This document shows positions 925 to 64,000 of a stretch of 64,000 nucleotides of DNA, piece by piece. The stretch is from Tupaia tana. Its lineage: Eukaryota > Chordata > Mammalia > Scandentia > Tupaiidae. The number at the start of each line of letters is the position of its first letter. Positions within the stretch are counted from its first letter, which is position 1. The stretch lies in NCBI GenBank assembly GCA_026018925.1, contig JAKSZU010000025.1, positions 20,997,391 through 21,061,390 on the forward strand, in the 5' to 3' direction. Both the position numbers and the translations under genes were made by a program. The notes under the pieces were generated by a model. The model worked only from the letters and a program-made list of their open reading frames with translations, had not been told where the DNA came from and made no database searches.

Positions 925-1560
925 GAGATTATTTTTTTTGTTTTTATTATTATTATTTTTATTATTATTTATGAATTCAGTCACTATTCATCATTCAGAT
1001 TGTAAAGAGACTTTACCCAGCATGATACACATCTCAGTCCAGTTGAGAATACTATACACATCTTCATCAACAAATAAGAAACTATATCTGTGTCTCGTAA
1101 ATATCTTACCTGTTTTCCTCCCAAATTTCCTTTCCTGCACTCTTCCCCTCCCATACTCTCTTCCACTTTGTCTCTAGTGTCCATATAATTTTTAATGCTT
1201 TTATGTCCTCCAGTCTTGCAGTCTCTACCATAGAGTACAGACAGTCTGTAAATGTTAAGTGGAGACATACAATGTCTCTCTTTCACAGCCTGACTTGCTT
1301 TACTCAGTAACAAATCTTCCATATTTGTCCACTTTCTATCAAATTCCAGGGCCTTGTTTTTTTTTTTCTTTTTTATGGCTGAATAATATTCCATGGAGTT
1401 TATGTGCCACACTTTTTCAATCCATTCATCTGTTTGTAGACATTTGGATTGGTTTCATGTATTAGCAATCATGAAGAGTACTGCAATAAATATAGTTGTG
1501 CAAGCATTTTTTCAACTGAGCATTCGCCTGTCCTTTGGGTAGATTATAAGGACATGAGGA
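925..1560 (-). mobile_element. L1 LINE 3' end (ORF2 C-terminus and 3' UTR), truncated
   Basis: On the minus strand the frame contains the L1 ORF2 C-terminal signature MEYYSAIKK, followed by words like LLLSKASQ, matching the family's EYYAAIKK...ILSKLSQ. The + strand has the usual antisense landmark ATATTCCATGGAGTTTATGT and ends near CCTTTGGGTAGATTATAAGG. The T/ATT-rich run at 929-970 is the antisense poly(A) tail. Nearly all of ORF2 is missing (5' truncated), as for most L1 copies. Confidence 0.85.
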
Positions 1561-30852: not shown

Positions 30853-32280
30853 GACCTGTTCCTATCATTAAGTGAGCCATTTTCTTGGGTGTTTTTTATT
30901 CTCTTATAATTGTGCATCTGACTTTTTAGTTTTCCTGGCATAGTACTCCCTTCTGAACCTCTTGAAGAGATGTTCTAGAGTTGGTAAATTCTTTCAGATT
31001 TTGTTTATCCAAGAATGTTTTTATCTTTTTTCCTCATATGAAGGATAATCTCAATGGGTATAGTATTCTTGGTTGAAATTGTTTTTCATTTAATGCTTTC
31101 ACTATATTTTCCCATTCCCTTCTTGCCTGCATTATTTCCGATGGGAGGTCTGATGTTAGCCTGATGGGGAGACATGTGTAAGTAACTCGATATTTCCCTC
31201 TTGTCAATTTTAGTATTTTGTCTTTGCTTGTGGTTTTGGCCAATCTGGCCGTGATGTGTCTTAGAGAGGATCTTCTTGGATTGATTCTGTTTGGGAGTCT
31301 ACGTATTTCTTGGATCTGAATATTTGAATACCTTGCTAGGTTTGGAAAATTTTCTTCCAGTATTTCATTAAATAAATTATCAATGCCCTTATTATTTTCC
31401 TTTCTTTTCTGGAATACCAATTATTAGGACATTGGGGCATTTGATGGTATCCTGTATTTCTCATATATTATCCACATTTTTCTTGGTTGTTTTCTCAGTC
31501 TTTCTGATGCTTTTTTCTAAGTCAGAGACTTTGTCTTCTATGTTCGCAATTTGATCTTCTGTGTAACCTAATCTACTCTTAATACTCTCGAGGGAGGTTT
31601 TCATTTTCTTTATCACATTCTTCATCCCTAACAGTTGCTTGATTCTATTTTAAGGTGCCTATTTCTTCTTTCAACTCATCAAAAGTACTTCCTCACTTCC
31701 TTCAGGAGCTCATTGCCTCCTTTTTCTTGCATCTCAATTAGTTTGGTTACTACAAATATTTCGAGTTGCTTATCTGACATATGCACAACTTCCCTTGTGT
31801 AGTCTGTGGGTGATATGGAATTAACGTTTTCCTTTGTGGAAGAGACATTTTGTTGGTTGCTCAAATTTCTTATGCCTCTGTGATTGTTCCTACTCATCTG
31901 GCAATCTATATGTTCCTTCCTAAATTATTCAAGGTGTCTCTGAGCATTCAGAGGTGTGCAGGAGTAGAAAATTGGCGATCTCTCTTCTGCTCTGCCTCTC
32001 TGTTGTTTGACAGTACCCTGCACTGTTGTCACTGGTCCTGGGTAGCCCAAAGTCCTCCCTGCTTCTAAAGAACAGGTATGACTCCAACTGAGCTGTTGAA
32101 CTTCACTTTAGGAGCAAAGAAAATATTTGAGCCATTTTATATGAAACACCAAAGTTCTGAGAGTCCAAAGGCCAGTGGGGTGGGGGGGGGGTGTGTGCAG
32201 CTGGAGATGGACCACAGGTCCTGGCCATTAAGGCCTGCAGCCACAGGTAGCCTGGTGTCCAGCAAGCTGCTCTCTTGAAC
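30853..32280 (-). mobile_element. L1 (or HAL1-like) 5' part: 5' UTR plus disabled ORF1, ORF2 missing
   Basis: Reading the minus strand: 5' UTR at about 31,900-32,280, then ORF1 starting with MSRNNHRGIRNL near 31,897, passing through frameshifts. The conserved C-terminal half at 31,034-31,420 contains NLFNEILEENFPNL, IQIQEIRRLPNRI, TYTCLPIRLTSDLPSE and FQPRILYPLRLSF, all typical of the L1 ORF1 RNA-binding (transposase_22) protein. The C-terminal end continues in another frame to about 30,925. The copy stops at the start of ORF2 without a poly(A) tail. ORF1p normally coats L1 RNA; this copy is broken by at least two frame changes. An old 3'-truncated L1 or a HAL1 are both possible. Confidence 0.85.
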
Positions 32281-46965: not shown

Positions 46966-49900
46966 TAGTAAATAAAGAACACAGCACACCCCAGCTTTAA
47001 TCCACAGAACACCCCACTTTAAACAACAGCACAGCTCACTTTGACTGAGAGCACACCTTGGCACCACTCCACACATCACTAAGACACAAAGCATAAAAGT
47101 GTGACCTACAGCGCATCCAACATTGACACAAACCTTACTGGGACCCACAATAATAGTCATTGATCTATACAGCATACCCCAATTTAACTCAGAGTACTCC
47201 CCATTTAAACAACAGCACAGCCCATTGCAACACACAGCATACTTCAGTGAGACCACTGCACATATCACTGAGACCCAAAGAACAAATCTGAAAACCTAAA
47301 CACACCCCACTCAGACCCAAAGCTCACTGGCACCCAGAGCAAAATTTTTTGTTACACAGCACACCTCAATTTAACACAAAGCACACTCCAATTTAACCAA
47401 CAGCACAGCCCACTGTGACCAACAGCACACCTCAGTGAGACCACTGCACACATCACTGAGACAAAAAGCATAAAAGTGTGACGTCAAACACAATGCACAC
47501 TGACACAATCCTCATTGGGACCCACAGCAAAACTCATTGAGTTACACAGCACACCCCACTTTCACCCACACCACATCCTAATTTAACCAATACCTCAGCC
47601 CACTGTGAACCACAGCAAATGTCATTGAGATCACCACACATCACTGAGACGCAAAGAACAAATCTGTGATGCACAGGACACCCCACACAGACCCAAAAGT
47701 CACTGAGACCAACAGTCTAATTCATCGAGGTACAAAGAACACCCCACTTTAACCCATAGCACACACCACTTTGACCAACCGTACAGCCCACTGCAAATGA
47801 TAGCACACCTCAGTGAGACCACTACACATATCACTGAGAACCAAAGCACAGCAGTGGGACCCAAATCACACCCTTCTCTGAACCAAAACTCACTGGAACC
47901 CACAGCAATATTCATCGAAATACACAGCACACCCCACTTTAACCCACAGCACATCCCAATGAAACCCACAGTATGCCTCGGTGAGACCACTGCACACATA
48001 AATGAATTCCAAAAATAAATCTGCAACCCACTTCAATCAGACCCACTGCAAATTTCTTTGAGTTACACAGCACACCCCACTTTAACACACAGCACACCCT
48101 ACTTTAACAAATAGCACAGTCTGCTACGATCTACCACACACCTCAGTGAAACCACCATACACATCACTGAGACCCAAAGAACAAATCTGTGACCCAGAGC
48201 ACACCACACACAGACCAAAACCTCAGTGTGACCCTCAGTCAAATTCATTGAGTTACACAGCACAGCCCATTTTAACCAACAGCTTACCCCACTTTAACCA
48301 ACAACACAGCCCACTGTGATCCACCGCATACTTCAGTGAGACCACCACACACATCACTGAGACCCAAAGAATTAAAGTGTGACCCAGAGCACACCCCACT
48401 CTAAAACAAACCTCACCAGCAAACACAGCAATATTGAGTTACCCAGCACACTCCACTTTAAACTAGAGCACACCCCATTTAACCAACAGCACAGCCCACT
48501 GTGACACACAGCACAACTCAGTGAGACCACTGCACACATCTCTGATACCCAAAAAACAAATCTGTGACCCACAACACACCGCATTCAGACACAAACCTCG
48601 CAATTACCCACAGCAAAATCCGTTGAGTTACACAGCAAACCCACTTTAACCGAAAGCGCAACACACTTTAAACAACAGCACAGCCCACTGTGACCAAAGA
48701 ACACCACACTGAGACTACTACACACATCACTAAGACCAGAAGAACAAATCTGTGACCCACAACACTCTCCACTCACACTCTAACCTCACTAGGACCCAGA
48801 AAAAAATCATTGAATTACAAAGCACACGCCACTTTAAGCCAAAGATAAACCCAATTTAAGCCACAGCACAGTCTACTGTGAACCAAAGCACACATCACTA
48901 GGACCAGTACATATAAAACTCAGGCACTAAGAACAAATCTGCGACCAGGAACACACCCTACCTTCACTGGGTCCCACAGAAAAATTTATTAAATTTTAAA
49001 GCAAGCCCCACTTTAAGCCAAAGCTCAACTCACTTTAAGCAACAGCACAACCCACTGTGAGCTAAAGCACACCTCACTGGATCCACTGCACTTATGATTC
49101 AGACACTAAGAACAAATTTGCGACCTGCAACACACCCAACTCACATCCTATTTTTACTGGGACCCACAGAAAAATTTATTGAGTTATGAAGCAATCACCA
49201 CTTTATGCCAAAAGCTCAACCTACTTTAAACCACAGCACAGCCAACCTCACTGAGACCACTACACATATCACTCAGACCCTAAGAATATATCAGCTACCC
49301 ACAACACACCTCACTCTCACCCTATCTTCACTTGAACCCACAGCAAAACTTTTTGAGTTTCAAAGCAAGCCCCACTTTAAGCCAAAGCTCGACACACTTT
49401 AAACAACAACACAACCAACTGAGATTCAGAGAACACCTCATTGAGACCACTACACCCAACACTCAGACCCGAAGAACAAATCTGCAACCCACAACACTCC
49501 CATCTCACACGCTAAACTCACTGGGACTCACAGAAATATTCACTGAGTTATAAAGCAAACCCCATAGTAAGCCAAAGGTCAACACACTTTAACCACTAGT
49601 ACAGCTCTCTGTGAACCAAAGCACACATCAGTGAGACCACTACACACATCATTCACACATTAAGAACAAATCTGTGACCCACAACACTCCCCACATACAC
49701 AATAACTTCACTGGGACATACAGGTATATTCATTGGGTTATACAGCACACCGCACTGTATGCCTCAGCACACCTCACTTTAAACCAAAGCACAGCTTACT
49801 GGGACCAACAGTTCACATCACTGGGAACACTGTACACTTCATTTAGACCTTAAGAACATATCAGCTACCCCACAACACACCCACTAACACCTTAACCTCA

Positions 49901-50550
49901 GTAGGACCCACAGCAAAATTCATTTGGTACAAAGCAAACCCCACTTTAAGCCAAAGCTCAACCCACATTAAACCTCCGCACAGCCCACAGTGAACCAAAG
50001 ACCCCCTCACTGAGACCACTACAAACATCACTCAGACCAGAAGAACAAATCTGTGACCCACAAAACTCTGCACTCACACCCGAAACTCACTGGGACCCAC
50101 AGAAACATTCACTGAATTACAAAGCATACCACACATTAAGCCAAAGTTCAACCCATTTTACACCACAGCACAGCCCACTGAACTGAAAACCAGCCCACTT
50201 AGACCACTACACAAACATTCAGACCCAAAGAACAAATCGGCCACCCACAAAATTTGCCACTCACGCTAACATCAGAGAGAACCTCAGTAACATTCATTAA
50301 TTTTCAACGCAGACCCCACTTTAAGCTAAAGGTCAACCAAATTTAAACCACAGCATAGCCAACTTAGAACCAAAAGCCAGCTCACTGACACCACTACACA
50401 CAACATTCAGACATGAAGAACAAATCTGCCACCCACAAAAATCCCAACTAAAACTGTAACCTCACTGGGAACCTCAGCAACATTCATTGATTTTCAAAGC
50501 AAAAACAAGTTTTAACCAAAGCTCAACCCACTTCAAACCACAGCACAACA
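46966..50550. repeat. Diverged, monomeric edge of the satellite
   Basis: The ~188-bp period is still visible (ACACAGCACACCTCAATTT near 47,355; the corresponding CACCCCACTTT near 47,547 and 47,737), but neighbouring units differ at many positions. Unit landmarks here are GAGTTACACAGCACACC and CACATCACTGAGACCCAAAG. No higher-order pattern is obvious by eye. Confidence 0.85.
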
Positions 50551-53336
50551 CACAGTGAACAAAAAAAAAAAAAACAAAAAAAAAAAACTGAGACCACTAC
50601 ACACAACATTCAGACTCAAAAACAAATGAGCCACTGACAAAATTACCCACTCACACCCTAACATCTGTAAGAACATCAGCAACATTCATTTATTTTCAAA
50701 ACAAGCCAAATTTTAAGCCAAATCTCAACACAACTTAAAAGACAGCACAACCCACAGTGAACCAAAACCAACAAACTGATACCACTAAACATAACACTCA
50801 GACCCGCAGAACGAATTTGCCAATGACAAAATTAGCCACTCAAACATTACGTCAGTGAGAAACCCAGAAACATTCATTGATTTTCAAAGCAAAACAAATT
50901 TTAAGACAAAGCACAACAAACTTCAAACCACAGCAGGCCCACTGAGAACAAAAAACCAGCCAACTGACAGGACTACACAAAACATTCAGACACGAAGAAC
51001 AAATATGCGACCTTCAAAAATCACAACTAACACCATAACCTCACTGGAACCTCAGCAACATTCATTGATTTTCAAAGCGAACCCCACTTTAAGCCAAAGA
51101 CCAACTCACTTAAAAACACAGTACAGCCCACTGTGACCTGAAAACCAGCCCACCTAGACCACTGAATACAACATTCAGACCCGAAGAACAAATCTGCCAC
51201 CCAAATATTTCCCACTCACACCCTAATGGCAGTAAGAACCTCAGCAACATTCATTGATTTTCAAACAAACCCCATTTCAGCCAAATCTCAACCCAATTGA
51301 AACCACAGCACAGCCCACAGTGAACTGAAAACTAAAAAACTGATACCACTACAAACAACATTCAAACCCCAGGTATCAATCTGCCACCCACAAAATTCGC
51401 CCTTAACACCCTATCATCAGTGAGAACCTCAGCAACATTCATTGAATTTCAAAGCAAACCCCACTTTAAGCCAAAGCCCCACCCATTTCAAACCACAGTA
51501 CAGCCCACTGTGAACCAAAAACAAACCCACGTCGACCACTGCACACAAAACTCAGACCCGAAGAACAAATCTGCCACCCAAAAAATTCCCACTCACAACC
51601 TAACTGCAGTAAGAACCCCAGCAACATTCATTGATTTTCAAATAATCTCCATTTCATCCAAATCACAACCCAATGGAAACCACAGCACTGCCCACAGTGA
51701 ACCGAAAACCAACAAATTGATTCCACTACACACAACATTCAGACCTGAAGAACAAATCTGCCACCCACAGAATTCCCCACTCACACCGTAACCACAGTAA
51801 GAATATCAGCAACATTCATTGATTTTCAAAGCAAACCCCATTTCAGCCAAATTTCAGACCAATTGAAACCACAGCACAGCACACAGTGAACGGAAAACCA
51901 AGAAACTGATACCAGTATACACAACATTCAGACCCCAAGTACCAATCTACCACCCACAAAATTTGCCCTTAACACCCTATCATCAGTGAGAACCTCAGCA
52001 ACATTCATTGATTTTCAAAGCAAACCCCACTTTAAGCCAAACCCAACACACTGCATACCACAGTACAGCCCACTCTGAACTGATAACTAGTGCAGTTAGA
52101 CCACCGCACACAACATTCAGACGCGAAGAATAAATCTGCCACCCACAGAATTCCCCACTCACACCCTAACCGCAGTAAGAACATCAGCAACATTCACTGA
52201 TTTTCAAAGCAAATCCCATTTCAGCCAAATCTCAAAGCAATTGAAACCACAGCAGAGCACACAGTGACCCAAAATCCAACAAACTGATAACACTACACAC
52301 AACACTCAGACCCGAAGTACCAATCTGCAATCCACGGAATTCGCCCCTAGGGCCCTATCATCGGTGAAAACCTAAGAAACATCGATTGGTTTTCAATGCA
52401 AACCCCACTTTAAGCCAAAGCCCCACCTATTTCAAACCACACTGCAACCCACTGTGGACCGAAAACAAGACCACGTAGACCACTGCACACAACATTCAGA
52501 TCCAAAGAACAAATCTGCCACCCAAAAATTCCCCACTCACAACCTAATGGCAATAAGAACCTCAGGAACATTCATTGATTTTCCAAACAAACCCCATTTC
52601 AGCCAAACCTTAACCCAAATGAAACCACAGAGCAGCCCACAGTGAACCGAAAAGCAACAAACTGATACCACTACACACAACATTCAGACCCGAAGTACCA
52701 ATGTGCAATCCACAGAATTTGCCCCTAGGACGCTATCATCAGTGAAAACCTAAGCAACATTCACTGATTTTCAAAGCAAACCCCATTTAAGCCAAAGCCC
52801 CGCCCATTTCAAACAAGAGTAGAACACACTGTGAACTGAAAACAAGCCCAGTTAGACCACTTCACAAAACACTCAGACCTGGAGAACAAATCTGCCACCC
52901 AAAAAATTCCCCACTCACAACCTAACGGCAATAAGAACCTCTGAAACATTCACTGATTTTCAAAGAAACCCCATTTCAGCAAAATCTCAACCCAATTGAA
53001 ACCGCAGGACAGTCCAAAGTGAACTGAAATCAAACAAACTGATACCACTACACACCCTATTCAGGCAACAAGTACCAATATCCCTCCCACAAAATTCGCC
53101 CATAACACCCTATCATCAGTTAGAACCTCAGGAAAACACATTGAATTTCAAGGAAAACCCCTCTTTAATCCAAAGCCCAAACCACAGTATGCCCCACTGT
53201 GAACAGAAAACCAGCCCACTTAAACAACTGCACACAACAATAACAAGCGAAGAACAAATCTGCCACCCACAGAATTCACCACTCACAAGCTAACGGCACT
53301 AAGAACCGCAGCAGCATTCATTGATTTTTAAAGAAA
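50551..53336. repeat. Transitional zone of the satellite
   Basis: Units now carry ATTCATTGATTTTCAAAGCA, typical of the inner array, and begin to alternate between CCCCACTTTAAGCC (type A) and CCCCATTTCAGCC (type B) starts. A small A-rich run (about 50,561-50,588) interrupts one unit. Copies are less alike than those after 53,337. Confidence 0.75.
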
Positions 53337-56300
53337 CCCCATTTCAACCAAATCTCAAAGCAATTGAAACCACAGCAGAGCACACAGTCAACCCAAAGCC
53401 AACAAACTGATACCACTACACACAACATTCAGACCCAAAGTACCAATCTGCTATGCACAGAATTCAGCCCTAACACCCTGTAATCAGTTAGAACCTCAGC
53501 AGCATTCATTGATTTTCAATGCAAACCCCACTTTAAGCCAAAGCCAAAACCACAGTATAGCCAACAGTGAACCGAAAACCAGCCCACTTAGACCACTGCA
53601 CAAAACATTCAGATGCGAAGAACAAATCAGCCACACACAGAATCCCCCACTCACAACCTAACAGCAAGAAGGACCTCAGAAACATTCATTGATTTTCAAA
53701 GCAAAGCCCATTTCAGCCAAAGATCAACCCAATGGAAACAACAGCACAGCCCTCAGTGAACCGAAAACCAACAAACTGATTCCACTACACACAACATTCA
53801 GACGCCAAGAACGAATCTGCCACCCACAAAATTTCCCACTCACAACCTAACAGCAAAATGAACCTCAGCAACGATCATTGATTTTCCAAACAAACCCCAT
53901 TTCAGACAAATGTCAACCCAATTGAAACCACAGCACCACCCACACTGAACCGAAAAGCAACAAACTGACACCACTACACACAAAATTCAGACCCCAAGTC
54001 CCAATGAGCCACCCACAGAATTTGCCCCTAGCACCCTCTCATAAGTGAGAACCGCAGCGATATTCATTGCTTTTCAAAGCAAACCCCACTTTAAGCGAAA
54101 GCCCCACCATTTCAAAGCACTGTACAGCCCACTGTGAACGGAAAACCAGCCCACTTAGACCACTGAATACAACACTCAGACCCGAAGAACAAATCTGCCA
54201 CCCAAAAATTTCCCACTCACACCCTAATGCAGTAAGAACGTCAGCAACATTCATTGATTTTCAAATAAACCCCATTTCAGCCAAATCTCAACCCAATTGA
54301 AACCACAGCACCGCCCACACTGAACCGAAAAGCAACAAACTGACACCACTACACACAACATTCAGACCCCAAGTCCCAATCAGCCACAAAAAGAATACGC
54401 CCCTAGCCCCCTCTCATCAGTGAGAACCTCAGCGACATTCATTGCTTTGCAAAGCAAACCCCACTTTAAGCCAAAGCTCTACCCATTTCAAAGCACTGTA
54501 CAGCCCACTTAGACCACTGAATACAACATTCGGACCCAAAGAACAAATCAGCTACCCCAAAATTTCTCACTCACATGCTAATGGCAGTAAGAACCTCAGA
54601 AACATTCATTGATTTTCAAATAAACCACATTTCAACCAAATCTCAACCCAATTGAAACCACAGCACTTCCCACACTGAACCAAAAAGAAACAAACTGACA
54701 CCACTACACACAACATTCAGACCCCAAGTCCCAATCAGCCACAAAAAGAATTCGCCTCTAGCCCCCTCTCATCAGTGAGAACCTCAGCGACATTCATTGC
54801 TTTTCAAAGCAAACCCCACTTTAAGTCAAAGCCCCACCCATTTCAAACCACTGTACAGCCCACTGTGAACCGAAAACCAGCCCACTTAGACCACTGAATA
54901 CAACATTCAGACCCGAAGAACAAATCTGCCACCCAAAAATTTCCAACACACACCCTAATGGCAGTAAGAACCTCAGCAATGGAAACCACAGCACAGCCCA
55001 CAGTGAACCGAAAACCAACAAAGTGATTCCACTACACACAACATTCAGACGCCAAGAACGAATCTGCCACCCACAAAATTCCCCACTCACAACCTAACGG
55101 CAAATTTAACCTGAGCAACGATCATTGATTTTCCAAACAAACCCCATTTCAGCCAAATCTCAACCCAATTGAAACTACAGCACCGCCCACACTGAACCGA
55201 AAAACAACAAACTGACACCACTACACACAACATTCAGACCCCAAGTCCCAATGAGCCACCCACAGAATTCGCCCCTAGCACCCTCTCAACAGTGAGAACG
55301 TCAGCGATATTCATTGCTTTCCAAAGCAAACCCCACTTTAAGCCAAAGCCCCACCCATTTCAAAGCACTGTACAGCCCACTGTGAACCGAAAACCAGCCC
55401 ACTTAGACCACTGAATACAACACTCAGACCCGAAGAACAAATCTACCAAACAAAAGTTTCCCACTCACACCCTAAGGCATTAAGAGCCTCAGCAACATTC
55501 ATTGATTTTCAATGCAAACCCCACTTTAAGCCAAAGCCCAAACCACAGTATAGCCAACTGTGAACCGAAAACCAGCACACTTAGACCACTGCACAAAACA
55601 TACAGACGTGAAGAACAAATCAGTCACACACAGAATTCCCCACTCACAACCTAACAGCAAGAAGGACGTCAGAAACATTCATTGATTTTCAAAGCAAAAT
55701 CCATTTCAGCCAAAGCTCAACCCAATGGAAACCACAGCACAACCCACAGTGAACTGAGAACCAAGAAACTGATTCCACTACACACAACATTCAGACGCCA
55801 AGAACGAAACTGCCACCCACAAAATTCCCCACTCACAACCTAACGGCAAAAAGAACCTCAGCAACGATCATTGATTTTCCAAACAAACCCCATTTCAGCC
55901 AAATCTCAACCCAATTGAAACCACAGCACCGCCCACACTGAACCAAAAAGCAACAAACTGACACCACTACACACAGCAATCAGACCCCTAGTTCCAATCA
56001 GCCACCCACAGAATTCGCCCCTAGCACCCTCTCATCCGTAAGAACCTCAGTGACATTCATTGCTTTTCAAAGCAAACCCCACTTTAAGCCAAAGCCCCAC
56101 CCATTTCAAGGCACTGTACAGCCCACTGTGAACCGAAAACCAGCCCATTAGACCAATGAATACAACATTGAGACCCAAATTTTCCACCCAAAAATTTCCC
56201 ACTCACACGCTAATGGCAGTAAGAACCTTAGCAACATTCATTGATTTTCAAATAAACCCCATTTCAGCCAAATCTCAACCCAATTGAAACCACAGCACCG

Positions 56301-57766
56301 CCAACACTGAACCGTAAAGCAACAAACTGACACCACTACACACAACATTCAGACCCCAAGTACCAATCAGCCACCCACAGAATTCACCCCTAGGACCCAC
56401 TCATCAGTGAGAACCTCAGCAACACTCATTGCTTTACAAAACAAACCCCACTTTAAGCCAAAGCCCCACCCATTTCAAACCACCGTACAGCCCACTGTGA
56501 ACCGAAAACCAGCCCACTTAGACCACTGCATACAACATTCAGACCCGAAGAACAAATCTGCCACCCAAAAATTTCCCACTCACACCCTAATGGCAGTAAG
56601 AACCTCAGCAACATTCATTGATTTTCAAATAAACCCCATATCAGCCAAATCTCAACCCAATTGAAACCACAGCACCGCCCACACTGAACCGAAAAGCAAC
56701 AAACTGACACCACTACACACAACATTCAGACCCCTAGTCCCAATCAGCCAACCACAGAATTCACCCCTAGCACCCTCTCATCAGTGAGAACCTCAGCGAC
56801 ATTCATTGCTTTTCAAAGCAAACCCCACTTTAAGCCAAAGCCCCACCCATTTCAAAGCACTGTACAGCCCACTGTGAACCGAAAACCAGTCCACTTTGAC
56901 CACTGAAAACAACATTCAGACCCGAAGAACAAATCTGCCACCCAAAAATTTCCCACTCACACGCTAATGGCAGTAAGAACGTCAGCAACATTCATTGATT
57001 TTCAAATAAACCCCATTTCAGCCAAATCTCAACCCAATTGAAACCACAGCACAGCACACAGTGAACTGAAAACTAAAAATGTGATACCACTACACACAAC
57101 ATTCAGACCCCATGTATCAATCTGCCACCCACAAAAATTTCCCTTAACACCCTTTCATCAGTGAGAACCTCAGCAACATTCAGTGATTTTCAAAGCAAAC
57201 CCCACTTTAAGCCAAAGCGCTACCTATTTCAAACCACCGTGCAGCCCACTGTGAACTGAAGACAGGCTCACTTAGACCACTGCACACAACATTCAGACCC
57301 GAAGAACAAATCTGCCACCCCAAAATTTCCCACTCACACCCTAATGGCAGTAAGAACCTCAGCAACATTCATTGATTTTCAAATAAACCCCATTTCAGCC
57401 AAATCTCAACCCAATTGAAACCACAGCACAGCCCACAGTGAACTGAAAACTAAAAAACTGATACCACTGCACACAACATTCAGACCCCAGGTGTCAATCT
57501 GCCACCCACAAAATTCGTCCTTAACACCCTATCATCAGTGAGAACCTTAGCAACATTTATTGATTTTCAAAGCAAACCCCACTTTAAGCCAAAGCCCCAC
57601 CCATTTTAAACCACAGTGCAGCCCGCTGTGAACTGAAAACAAGCCCACTTAGACCACTGCACACAACGTTCAGACCCGAAGAACAATTCTGCCACCCAAA
57701 AAATTCCTCACTCACACCCTTACTGCAGTAGGGACCTCAGCAACATTCATTGATTTTGAAAGCAAC
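53337..57766. repeat. Higher-order repeat copy 1 (24 monomers, ~4.43 kb)
   Basis: It aligns unit by unit with 57,767-62,213. Anchor pairs are 53,751/58,181 (offset 4,430), 55,601/60,049 (4,448) and 57,721/62,168 (4,447). The offset changes chiefly because of a 22-bp deletion in this copy near 54,510. Confidence 0.93.
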
Positions 57767-60700
57767 CCCCATTTCAGCCAATTCTCAAAGTAACTTAAAC
57801 CACAGCAGAGCACACAGTGAACCCAAAGCCAACAAACTGATACCACTACACACAACATTCAGACCCGAAGTACCAATCTGCTATGCACAGAATTCGCCCC
57901 TAACACCCTATCATCAGTTAGAACCTCAGCAACATTCATTGATTTTCAATGCAAACCCCACTTTAAGCCAAAGCCAAAACCACAGTATAGCCAACAGTGA
58001 ACCGAAAACCAGCCCACTTAGACCACTGCACAAAACATTCAGATGCGAAGAACAGATCAGCCACACACAGAATTCCCCACTCACAACCTAACAGCAAGAA
58101 GGACCTCAGAAACATTCATTGATTTTCAAAGCAAAACCCATTTCAGCCAAAGATCAACCCAATGGAAACCACAGCACAGCCCTCAGTGAACCGAAAACCA
58201 ACAAACTGATTCCACTACACACAACATTCAGACGCCAAGAACGAATCTGCCACCCACAAAATTTCCCACTCACAACCTAACAGCAAAATGAACCTCAGCA
58301 ACGATCATTGATTTTCCAAACAAACCCCATTTCAGACAAATGTCAACCCAATTGAAACCACAGCACCGCCCACACTGAACCGAAAAGCAACAAACTGACA
58401 CCACTACACACAACATTCAGACCCCAAGTCCCAATCAGCCACCCACAAATTCGCCCCTAGCACCCTCTCATCAGTGAGAACCGCAGCGATATTCATTGCT
58501 TTTCAAAGCAAACCCCACTTAAAGCCAAAGCCCCACCATTTCAAAGCACTGTACAGCCCACTGTGAACCGAAAACCAGCCCACTTAGACCACTGAATACA
58601 ACATTCAGACCCAAAGAACAAATCTGCCACCCAAAAATTTCCCACTCACACCCTAATGGCAGTAAGAACCTCAGCAACATTCATTGATTTTCAAATAAAC
58701 CCCATTTCAGCCAAATCTCAACCCAATTGAAACCACACCACCTCCCACACTGAACCAAAAAGCAACAAACTGACACCACTACACACAACATTCAGACCCC
58801 AAGTCCCAATCAGCCACAAAAAGAATTCGCCCCTAGCCCCCTCTCATCAGTGAGAACCTCAGCGACATTCATTGCTTTTCAAAGCAAACCCCACTTTAAA
58901 CCAAAGCTCTACCCATTTCAAAGCACTGTACAGCCCACTGTGAACTGAAAACCAGCACACTTAGACCACTGAATACAACATTCGGACCCAAAGAACAAAT
59001 CAGCTACCCCAAAATTTCTCACTCACATGCTAATGGCAGTAAGAACCACAGAAACATTCATTGATTTTCAAATAAACCCCATTTCAGCCAAATCTCAACC
59101 CAATTGAAACCACAGCACTGCCCACACTGAACCAAAAAGCAACAAACTGACACCACTACACAAAACATTCAGACCCCAAGTCCCAATCAGCCACAAAAAG
59201 AATTTGCCTCTAGCCCCCTCTCATCAGTGAGAACCTCAGCGACATTCATTGCTTTTCAAAGCAAACCCCACTTTAAGCCAAAGCCCCATCCATTTCAAAC
59301 CACTGTACAGCCCACTGTGAACCGAAAACCAGTCCACTTAGATCACTGAATACAACATTCAGACCCGAAGAACAAATCTGCCACCCAAAAATTTCCAACA
59401 CACACCCGAATGGCAGTAAGAACCTCAGCAATGGAAACCACAGCACAGCCCACAGTGAACCGAAAACCAACAAACTGATTCCACTACACACAACATTCAG
59501 ATGCCAAGAACGAATCTGCCACCCACAAAATTCCCCACTCACAACCTAACGGCAAATTGAACCTGAGCAACGATCATTGATTTTCCAAACAAACCCCATT
59601 TCAGCCAAATCTCAACCCAATTCAAACTACAGCACCGCCCACACTGAACCGAAAAACAACAGACACCACTACACACAACATTCAGACCCCAAGTCCCAAT
59701 CAGCCACCCCAAGAATTCGCCCCTAGCACCCTCTCAACAGTGAGAACGTCAGCGATATTCATTGGTTTTCAAAGCAAACCCCACTTTAAGCCAAAGCCCC
59801 ACCCATTTCAAAGCACTGTACAGCCCACTGTGAACTGAAAACCAGCCCACTTAGACCACTGAATACAACACTCAGACCTGAAGAACAAATCTACCAAACA
59901 AAAGTTTCCCACTCACACCCTAAGGCATTAAGAGCCTCAGCAACATTCATTGATTTTCAATGCAAACCCCACTTTAAGCCAAAGCCCAAACCACAGTATA
60001 GCCAACTGTGAACCGAAAACCAGCACACTTAGACCACTGCACAAAACATACAGACGTGAAGAACAAATCAGTCACACACAGAATTCCCCACTCACAACCT
60101 AACAGCAAGAAGGACCTCAGAAACATTCATTGATTTTCAAAGCAAAATCCATTTCAGCCAAAGCTCAACCCAATGGAAACCACAGCACAACCCACAGTGA
60201 ACTGAGAACCAAGAAACTGATTCCACTACACACAACATTCAGACGCCAAGAACGAAACTGCCACCCACAAAATTCCCCACTCACAACCTAACGGCAAAAA
60301 GAACCTCAGCAACGATCATTGATTTTCCAAACAAACCCCATTTCAGCCAAATCTCAACCCAAATGAAACCACAGCACCGCCCACACTGAACCAAAAAGCA
60401 ACAAACTGACACCACTACACACAGCAATCAGACCCCTAGTTCCAATCAGCCACCCACAGAATTCACCCCTAGCACCCTCTCATCCGTAAGAACCTCAGTG
60501 ACATTCATTGCTTTTCAAATCAAACCCCACTTTAAGCCAAAGCCCCACCCATTTCAAGGCACTGTACAGCCCACTGTGAACCGAAAACCAGCCCATTAGA
60601 CCAATGAATACAACATTGAGACCCAAATTTTCCACCCAAAAATTTCCCACTCACATGCTAATGGCAGTAAGAACCTTAGCAACATTCATTGATTTTCAAA

Positions 60701-62213
60701 TAAACCCCATTTCAGCCAAATCTCAACCCAATTGAAACCACAGCACCGCCAACACTGAACCGTAAAGCAACAAACTGACACCACTACACACAACATTCAG
60801 ACCCCAAGTCCCAATCAGCCACCCACAGAATTCGCCCCTAGGACCCACTCATCAGTGAGAACCTCAGCAACACTCATTGCTTTTCAAAACAAACCCCACT
60901 TTAAGCCAAAGCCCCACCCATTTCAAACCACCGTACAGCCCACTGTGAACCGAAAACCAGCCCACTTAGACCACTGAATACAACATTCAGACCCGAAGAA
61001 CAAATCTGCCACCCAAAAATTTCCCACTCACACCCTAATGGCAGTAAGAACCTCAGCAACATTCATTGATTTTCAAATAAACCCCATTTCAGCCAAATCT
61101 CAACCCAATTGAACCACAGCACCGCCCACACTGAACCGAAAAGCAACAAACTGACACCACTACACACAACATTCAGACCCCTAGTCCCAATCAGCCAACC
61201 ACAGAATTCACCCCTAGCACCCTCTCATCAGTGAGAACCTCAGCGACATTCATTGCTTTTCAAAGCAAACCCCACTTTAAGCCAAAGCCCCACCCATTTC
61301 AAAGCACTGTACAGCCCACTGTGAACCGAAAACCAGTCCACTTTGACCACTGAAAACAACATTCAGACCCGAAGAACAAATCTGCCACCCAAAAATTTCC
61401 CACTCACACGCTAATGGCAGTAAGAACGTCAGCAACATTCATTGATTTTCAAATAAACCCCATTTCAGCCAAATCTCAACCCAATTGAAACCACAGCACA
61501 GCACACAGTGAACTGAAAACTAAAAATGTGATACCACTACACACAACATTCAGAACCCATGTATCAATCTGCCACCCACAAAAATTTCCCTTAACACCCT
61601 TTTATCAGTGAGAACCTCAGCAACAGTCAGTGATTTTCAAAGCAAACCCCACTTTAAGCCAAAGCGCTACCTATTTCAAACCACTGTGCAGCCCACTGTG
61701 AACTGAAAACAGGCTCACTTAGACCACTGCACACAACATTCAGACCCGAAGAACAAATCTGCCACCCCAAAATTTCCCACTCACACCCTAATGGCAGTAA
61801 GAACCTCAGCAACATTCATTGATTTTCAAATAAACCCCATTTCAGCCAAATCTCAACCCAATTGAAACCACAGCACAGCCCACAGTGAACTGAAAACTAA
61901 AAAACTGATACCACTGCACACAACATTCAGACCCCAGGTGTCAATCTGCCACCCACAAAATTCGTCCTTAACACCCTATCATCAGTGAGAACCTTAGCAA
62001 CATTTATTGATTTTCAAAGCAAACCCCACTTTAAGCCAAAGCCCCACCCATTTTAAACCACAGTGCAGCCCGCTGTGAACTGAAAACAAGCCCACTTAGA
62101 CCACTGCACACAACGTTCAGACCCGAAGAACAATTCTGCCACCCAAAAAATTCCTCACTCACACCCTTACTGCAGTAGGGACCTCAGCAACATTCATTGA
62201 TTTTGAAAGCAAC
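57767..62213. repeat. Higher-order repeat copy 2 (24 monomers, 4,447 bp)
   Basis: Unit starts that I can place are 57,767, 57,956, 58,137, 58,325, 58,513, 58,700, 58,889, 59,077, 59,266, [fused], 59,594, 59,779, 59,967, 60,147, 60,336, 60,525, 60,705, 60,894, 61,082, 61,270, 61,458, 61,647, 61,835, 62,024 and then 62,214. Types A and B mostly alternate, giving 12 dimers. Units 9 and 10 are joined by a ~48-bp deletion. Confidence 0.93.
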
Positions 62214-62402
62214 CCCCATTTCAGCCAATTCTCAAAGTAACTTAAACCACAGCAGAACACACAGTGAACCCAAAGCCAACAAACTGATACCACTACACAC
62301 AACATTCAGACCCGAAGTACCAATCTGCTATGCACAGAATTCGCCCCTAACACCCTATCATCAGTTAGAACCTCAGCAACATTCATTGATTTTCAATGCA
62401 AA

Positions 62403-62960
62403 CCCCACTTTAAGCCAAAGCCCAAACCACAGTATAGCCAACTGTGAACCGAAAACCAGCACACTTAGACCACTGCACAAAACATACAGACGCGAAGAAC
62501 AAATCAGCCACACACAGAATTCCCCACTCACAACCTAACAGCAAGAAGGACCTCAGAAACATTCATTGATTTTCAAAGCAAAATCCATTTCAGCCAAAGC
62601 TCAACCAAATGGAAACCACAGCACAGCCCACAGTGAACCAAAAACCAACAAACTGATTCCACTACACACAACATTCAGATGCCAAGAACAAATCTGCCAC
62701 CCACAAAATTCCCCACTCACAATCTAATGGCAAAAAGCACATCAGCAACGATCATTGATTTTCTAAACAAACCCCATTTCAGCCAAATCTCAACCCAATT
62801 GAAACCACAGCGCAGCCCACACTGAACCGAAAAGCAGCAAACTGACACCACTACACACAACATTCAGACCCCAAGTCCCAATCAGCCACCCACAGAATTC
62901 GCCCCTAGCACCCTCTCATCAGTGAGAACCTCAGCGACATTCATTGATTTTCAATGCAAA
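62403..62960. repeat. 558-bp trimer, copy 1
   Basis: Three units that resemble units 13-15 of the higher-order repeat. It is repeated immediately at 62,961-63,518; both share private changes such as GGCAAAAAGCACATCAGC and CCGAAAAGCAGCAAACTG. Confidence 0.85.
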
Positions 62961-63518
62961 CCCCACTTTAAGCCAAAGCCCATACCACAGTATAGCCAAC
63001 TGTGATCCGAAAACCAGCCCACTTAGACCACTATACAAAACATACAGACGCGAAGAACAAATCAGCCACCCACAGAATTCCCCACTCACAACCTAACAGC
63101 AAGAAGGAACTCAGAAACATTCATTGATTTTCAAAGCAAAATCCATTTCAGCCAAAGCTCAACCAAATGGAAACCACAGCACAACCCACAGTGAACTAAA
63201 AACCAACAAACTGATTCCACTACACACAACATTTAGATGCCAAGAAAAAATCTGCCACCCACAAAATTCCCCACTCACAACCTAATGGCAAAAAGCACAT
63301 CAGCAACAATCATTGATTTTCCAAACAAACCCCATTTCAGCCAAATCTCAACCCAATTGAAACCATAGCACAGCCCACACTGAACCGAAAAGCAGCAAAC
63401 TGACACCACTACACACAACATTCAGACCCCAAGTCCCAATCAGCCACCCACAGAATTCGCCCTTAGCACCCTCTCATCACTGAGGACCTCAGCGACATTC
63501 AATGATTTTCAAAGCAAA
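62961..63518. repeat. 558-bp trimer, copy 2
   Basis: Direct tandem copy of 62,403-62,960 with scattered single-base differences (for example ATTGATTTTCTAAAC in copy 1, ATTGATTTTCCAAAC here). Confidence 0.85.
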
Positions 63519-64000
63519 CCCCACTTTAAGCCAAAGCCCCACCCATTTCAAACCACTGTACAGCCCACTGTGAACCAAAAACCAGCCCACTTAGACCACT
63601 GAATACAACATTCAGACCCGAAGAACCAATCTGCCACCCAAAAATTTCCCACTCACACCCTAATGGCAGTAAGAACCTCAGCAACATTCATTGATTTTCC
63701 AAACAAACCCCATTTCAGCCAAATCTCAACCCAATTGAATCCACAACACAGCCCACAGTGAACCAAAAAGTAACAAACTGACACCACTACACACAACATT
63801 CAGACCCCAAGTACCAATCAGCCACCCACAACATTCGCCCATCACACCCTATCATCAGTTAGAACCTCAGGAAAACTGGTTGAATTTCACTGCAAACCCT
63901 GCTTTAAGCCAAAGCCCAAACCACAGTATAGCCCACTGTGAACCGAAAACAGCCGACTTAGACAACTGCACACAACATTAAGATGCGAAGAACAAATCTG

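What the first reader, a model, noticed from the sequence alone, without database searches (positions are those of the whole stretch)
53337..62213. 24-monomer higher-order repeat of ~4.45 kb in two consecutive copies
Anchor words recur at offsets of 4,430 to 4,448 bp across the whole length, and I could place 24 unit starts in copy 2. Units within a copy differ much more than the same units between copies. This is the hallmark of a higher-order repeat as in primate alpha satellite, made here from an unrelated monomer.
Basis: seen in the sequence. Interest (0 to 1): 0.9.

Follow-up and report, generated by a model that had tools for sequence, protein, structure and literature searches.

The report
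Twice-repeated 24-unit mammalian satellite block
At the edge of a satellite DNA array, most likely in a mammal, a block of 24 different ~189-base units occurs twice in a row, as in human centromere DNA; it is a clear example of a known kind of structure and it preserves traces of the exchanges that built it.

Summary
The copies align end to end at 97.75% identity. In-register units average 97.8%, the other 23 registers at most 82.2%, neighbouring units 70.6%. In the tree 20 of 24 pairs are each other's closest relatives. These are the figures of an alpha-satellite-type higher-order repeat.

Two limits apply. Only two copies plus one further unit (62,214-62,402) are visible: before 53,337 and from 62,403 the order differs, so an amplified 24-mer array is not shown. 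Unit 1 carries the trace of an unequal crossover, and the substitution rate changes inside the block (2.31% to 0.64%), implying a later exchange or conversion.

The block lies in a satellite array that starts at 46,979 and runs off the window. Its outer units are the most divergent and keep a 22-bp ancestral repeat most clearly, resembling the layered flanks of primate centromeres. Host: probably a placental mammal (L1 ORF1), not identified. New member of a known kind; centromere function untested.

The parts
46979..50128 (+). Outer, most divergent layer of the array (a 10-bp start piece and 17 units, m01-m17); 22-bp sub-repeats most visible here
   Evidence: units m01-m17 61-80% to the HOR-derived monomer consensus; m01-m09 57% to HOR units, 69% to each other; 22-bp unit score 232 for the outer consensus vs shuffled mean 93, sd 9, n=30
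50129..53336 (+). Intermediate layer: 17 units (m18-m34), mostly alternating A and B types from about 51,082; not in 24-mer order
53337..57766 (+). 24-mer copy 1 (4,430 bp), units AbCABABABCABbCABABABABAB
57767..62213 (+). 24-mer copy 2 (4,447 bp), same order
62214..62402 (+). Third copy of unit 1: 99.5% to copy 2 unit 1 (1 difference in the first 209 bases); copy 1 has 12 differences from copy 2 over the same 209 bases
62403..64000 (+). Array continues to the window end but not in 24-mer order: bCA, bCA, B, A and a 104-bp partial unit; the first b resembles unit 13 (98.9%); the two bCA triplets are 96% alike
53503..53545 (+). Stretch at the end of unit 1 and start of unit 2 identical in copy 1, copy 2 (57,933-57,975) and the third copy (62,380-62,422): inferred place of the unequal crossover
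54814..55141 (+). Truncated units 9 and 10 (157+171 bp); same lengths in copy 2 at 59,266-59,593, so an older, shared deletion
55321..55561 (+). Support interval of the substitution-rate changepoint between copies (best 55,436): 44 of 1,905 sites left, 15 of 2,330 right, unit 1 excluded
   Evidence: 1 of 500 permutations reached the observed likelihood gain (p = 0.004)

Best explanation
This is the edge of a centromeric or pericentromeric satellite array, probably of a placental mammal, built by nested tandem duplication. A ~22-bp unit gave a ~189-bp monomer; monomers diverged into A, B, b and C types, mostly alternating as 377-bp dimers; then out-of-register (unequal) crossover between two related unit-1 sequences 24 units apart duplicated the block. 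SHOWN by sequence: the unit-by-unit pairing, the single end-to-end alignment, the third unit 1 nearly identical to copy 2's, the rate change at about 55.4 kb, and the outward fall in similarity. INFERRED: the crossover in the shared stretch at the end of unit 1; a later gene conversion, or an exchange among three or more copies, in units 12-24; weaker homogenisation at the array edge as the cause of the gradient; the chromosomal position and any kinetochore or heterochromatin role.
For: In-register 97.8% against at most 82.2% in the other 23 registers and 70.6% between neighbours; 20 of 24 pairs are two-member clades in a 69-row tree. Unit 1: copies 1 and 2 differ at 12 sites, the last at 53,502, copy 2 and the third unit 1 at 1 of 209, as expected if the exchange fell at the end of unit 1. 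Left border abrupt at 100-bp resolution: 75-88% before 53,337, 94-100% after except one gapped bin of 80%. Polarised changes fall on both copies alike (units 2-11: 23 in copy 1, 18 in copy 2, 1 ambiguous; units 12-24: 7, 8, 2). Changepoint 2.31% to 0.64%. Similarity to HOR units rises inward: 0.57, 0.64, 0.72, 0.76. No coding signal found: 3 of the 14 array frames of 90 or more codons listed were scanned, with no Pfam match at E up to 0.1.
Against: Only two copies are visible. Four of 24 pairs (units 1, 5, 6, 18) are not clean in the tree; unit 1 is predicted by the crossover, the others are not explained beyond low divergence. No exact CENP-B core site in the array. Nothing here places the window at a centromere. 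No relatives outside the window were found, in collections that are not mammalian; the own-genome search did not complete.
Confidence: 0.8

Rival explanations
1. The pair is the outermost part of a longer, multi-copy 24-mer array that resumes beyond 64,000; the irregular stretch after 62,402 is a variant or an interruption. (Compatible with the best explanation; it differs in extent.)
For: The rate change inside the block is what a crossover among three or more copies would leave; the paper reports for the human X only 1-2 divergent copies at the border of the HOR array.
Against: From 62,583 on, the 7 units compared match copy 2 units at 86-96%, in the range of paralogous units within a copy.
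Confidence: 0.35
2. The second copy is an assembly artefact: two haplotypes, or mis-expanded repeats, laid in tandem.
For: Only two copies; 1.6% substitutions is within reach of a very diverse genome. No reads are available.
Against: No N in the window. The 24-to-1 junction occurs twice, with a third unit 1 nearly identical to copy 2's, and divergence is 12 of 189 in unit 1, then 2.3%, then 0.6%, which a simple haplotype duplication does not predict.
Confidence: 0.1
3. The apparent pairing is only the ordinary 377-bp dimer periodicity of the array seen at a long offset.
For: The dimer is strong: 377 is the leading lag within the block.
Against: Even shifts other than 0 reach only 0.72-0.80, and all 23 other shifts 0.71-0.82, against 0.978.
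Confidence: 0.02

Closest known systems
Primate alpha-satellite higher-order repeats and their older flanking layers (Shepelev et al. 2009, PMC2729386: abstract and passages seen; review PMC8122249: passages seen)
   Same: Neighbouring units ~70%, adjacent blocks up to 97-100%; alternating monomer types; abrupt border; older, more divergent units outward
   Different: Unit ~189 bp (alpha ~171 bp); strongly strand-biased, A/C-rich; 22-bp ancestry; no exact CENP-B core site in this window; two copies plus one unit seen; no copy of the flank's SINE found in the outer layer
Mouse Y-centromere Ymin repeat (passages seen: PMC3899357, PMC8496272)
   Different: Different monomer length; the Ymin array spans ~90 kb and the sequence binds CENP-A; here two copies and no binding data
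Higher-order repeats surveyed in animals and plants (Melters et al. 2013, PMC4053949, passages seen)
   Same: Clear higher-order structure in 76 of 171 species with Sanger data; described as widespread
   Different: Their reads rarely showed units of three or more monomers; here 24

Membership tests
Higher-order repeat (structural definition) | Multi-monomer block whose monomers differ more from each other than from their counterparts in the next block | tested here: met
   70.6% neighbours, 97.8% counterparts; 23 other registers at most 82.2%
Higher-order repeat (structural definition) | Counterpart monomers pair in a tree | tested here: met
   20 of 24 pairs (4 of the 20 are identical sequences); units 1, 5, 6, 18 not
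Homogenised HOR array of an active primate-type centromere | Many consecutive copies of the block | tested here: inconclusive
   Two copies plus one unit, then another order to the window end; beyond 64,000 unseen
Alpha satellite | ~171-bp monomer related in sequence to alpha satellite | not tested
   Length is ~189; no alpha-satellite sequence was aligned
CENP-B-binding satellite | Intact CENP-B core TTCGnnnnAnnCGGG (motif recalled) in some monomers | tested here: not met
   Array part of the window only: 0 exact, 2 with up to one mismatch, 120 with up to two, all on the minus strand; of 2,000 letter-permuted motifs 22% and 1% do as well at one and two mismatches
Centromeric satellite | CENP-A occupancy or centromere location | not testable with these tools
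   Needs ChIP or FISH

The most novel reading that the evidence does not exclude
A ~189-bp mammalian satellite not matched by anything I could search has independently followed the alpha-satellite route: 22-bp ancestor, monomer, dimer, then long local HORs, with older layers pushed outward, and without an intact CENP-B site, so that the primate-style expanding-centromere model could be tested in another order of mammals.
Probability: 0.3. Interest if true: 0.6.

Novelty: new member of a known kind. Interest (0 to 1): 0.4.

Why it matters
This block lies in an array whose boundary with ordinary chromosome DNA is in the same window, and it keeps both an outward gradient of divergence and the trace of the crossover that made the 24-mer. 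The model of satellites growing from the inside by unequal exchange can therefore be checked base by base. Neither the structure nor the mechanism is new in kind; if the host is not a primate, a 24-unit block would be a long example (the survey rarely could see three or more).

Tried and rejected
Identifying the species failed: 5 sequence words from the common SINE found 0 papers; SINE words gave 0 matches in genome contigs and viral contigs, and a satellite word 0 in viral contigs; these collections are prokaryotic and viral, so this says little. A recalled 18-base Afrotherian SINE core, up to 4 substitutions, was absent from the window, which weakly argues against that group.

CENP-B box: 120 sites with up to two mismatches looked striking, but none is intact and the minus strand's G/T-rich make-up favours them; 1% of permuted motifs reach the same count. 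I do not claim a decayed box.

An 11-unit internal duplication (about units 12-20 against 1-9, 91%) is visible, but for units 5 and 6 a 13-unit shift fits better, so I leave the internal history open.

Coding potential: 3 of the 14 array frames of 90 or more codons listed were scanned and had no Pfam match; the longest stop-to-stop frame in the array is 151 codons. RNA families: 0 at gathering score; 19 weak matches at E up to 1, none in the array. tRNA genes: 0.

Full report
CHECK OF THE OBSERVATION. The window has 64,000 bases and no N. From 46,979 to the window end Tandem Repeats Finder reports tandem repeats with periods near 189 and 377. I refined a 189-bp consensus on the reported interval by iterative wrap-around alignment, seeded with the first 189 bases from 53,337, and segmented 46,979-64,000 with it: 93 pieces, of which the first (10 bp) and last (104 bp) are partial; the other 91 entered the comparisons. 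The two intervals align in one piece at 97.75% (4,453 columns): 71 substitutions and 5 indels, 98.4% without gaps.

MORE THAN CHANCE OR DIMER PERIODICITY. Over all 24 circular registers of copy 2 against copy 1, mean unit identity is 0.978 in register and 0.705 to 0.822 in the other 23. Neighbouring units average 0.706 (46 pairs); all pairs within a copy average 0.754 and 0.763. The partner is the best match for 22 of 24 units in each direction. In a maximum-likelihood tree of 69 units (m23-m91), 20 of 24 pairs are two-member clades, 4 of them identical sequences; units 1, 5, 6 and 18 are not. Unusual lengths are shared: 180 bp at positions 2, 13 and 16, and 157+171 bp at positions 9-10; 19 of 24 positions have equal lengths.

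ANATOMY. Unit types along the block read AbCABABABCABbCABABABABAB. A and B consensus units are 88% alike. A weaker internal duplication, about units 12-20 against 1-9 at 91%, is partly contradicted by better 13-unit matches for units 5 and 6. A 22-bp sub-repeat underlies the monomer: the outermost consensus scores 232 against a cyclic 22-mer (30 shuffles: mean 93, sd 9, maximum 108), the HOR consensus 123 (mean 95.5, sd 6.8, maximum 111), so the outer layer keeps it more clearly. The whole array is strongly strand-biased (GC skew -0.46 to -0.50, AT skew +0.31 to +0.42 per 2-kb bin beyond 48 kb).

LIMITS OF THE BLOCK. To the left, identity at this offset is 75-88% in six 100-bp bins before 53,337 and 94-100% in the bins after it, except one bin of 80% with a 22-base gap. 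To the right, unit 1 recurs at 62,214-62,402 with 99.5% identity to copy 2, but the next unit is closest to unit 13 (98.9%) and the following seven reach 86-96% to any copy 2 unit; there two bCA triplets are 96% alike. So the window shows two copies and one unit, not a long array.

HOW IT AROSE. Over the 209 bases from the start of unit 1, copy 1 and copy 2 differ at 12 sites, the last at 53,502, while copy 2 and the third copy differ at 1. This is what an unequal crossover between two related unit-1 sequences 24 units apart would leave, with the exchange in the stretch identical in all three (53,503-53,545). Outside unit 1 the 59 substitutions are not even: 44 of 1,905 sites left of about 55,436 and 15 of 2,330 right of it (support interval 55,321-55,561; 1 of 500 permutations as extreme, p = 0.004). 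With the fixed split units 2-11 against 12-24 the binomial p is 1.5e-5, but that split was chosen after seeing the data; the permutation value is the fairer one. A later conversion of the right part, or an exchange among three or more copies, would explain it; I cannot tell these apart. Changes fall on both copies alike, which argues against poor sequence in one of them. At a mammalian rate of about 2.2e-9 per site and year (recalled, not from a call), the two parts would be roughly 5 and 1.5 million years old; this is only an order of magnitude.

SURROUNDINGS. The flank looks like mammalian DNA: an L1 ORF1 piece at 31,034-31,420 (Pfam Transposase_22, E 3e-23; LINE-1 ORF1p structures, best E 1e-35) and many copies of one tRNA-like SINE (34 matches, the query copy included; 38 with the consensus). 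That the host is a placental mammal is inference from these. None of the 38 SINE matches lies in the array, where about 14 would be expected at the flank's density (my arithmetic on matches, not on copies), and no satellite match at E up to 1e-3 lies in the flank. Identity to the HOR units rises inward: 0.57, 0.64, 0.72, 0.76 for units m01-m09, m10-m17, m18-m22 and m23-m34.

COMPARISON. A review gives ~70% between units and up to 97-100% between adjacent blocks for alpha satellite (PMC8122249, passages); older, more divergent layers outside and an abrupt border are described in PMC2729386 (abstract and passages). Higher-order repeats are not confined to primates: 76 of 171 species in one survey (PMC4053949, passages) and the mouse Y (PMC3899357 and PMC8496272, passages). 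Human blocks as long as 52 units are reported (PMC12385485, abstract). In the titles and abstract beginnings listed by my ten paper searches I saw no description of this satellite, but the species is unknown and the library is partial, so this says little about novelty.

VERDICT. A real 24-unit higher-order block in two copies, at the edge of a layered satellite array of an unidentified, probably placental, mammal. New member of a known kind. Centromere function, array extent beyond 64,000 and assembly correctness remain open; the own-genome search did not complete.

Noticed in passing
46,979-64,000: No copy of the flank's abundant SINE lies in the array (0 of 38 matches), even in its most divergent part; older layers of primate arrays are described as often disrupted by transposon insertions.
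   Followed up: partly
46,979-64,000: Strong strand asymmetry (A/C-rich plus strand) over the whole array, of unknown cause; it probably also underlies the excess of near-CENP-B words on the minus strand.
   Followed up: partly
50,558-50,588: A short A-rich stretch within a 202-bp unit of the intermediate layer.
   Followed up: no
1-46,978: An abundant tRNA-like SINE of about 260 bp with a CT-rich part and A tail, which I could not name; a consensus was made from 31 of the 34 matches.
   Followed up: partly
31,034-31,420 (-): Fragment of L1 ORF1; 984-1,454 (-) looks to me like the end of L1 ORF2 (recalled resemblance), but had no Pfam match.
   Followed up: partly
54,506: Copy 1 unit 7 lacks 22 bases present in copy 2, the length of the ancestral sub-repeat.
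   Followed up: no
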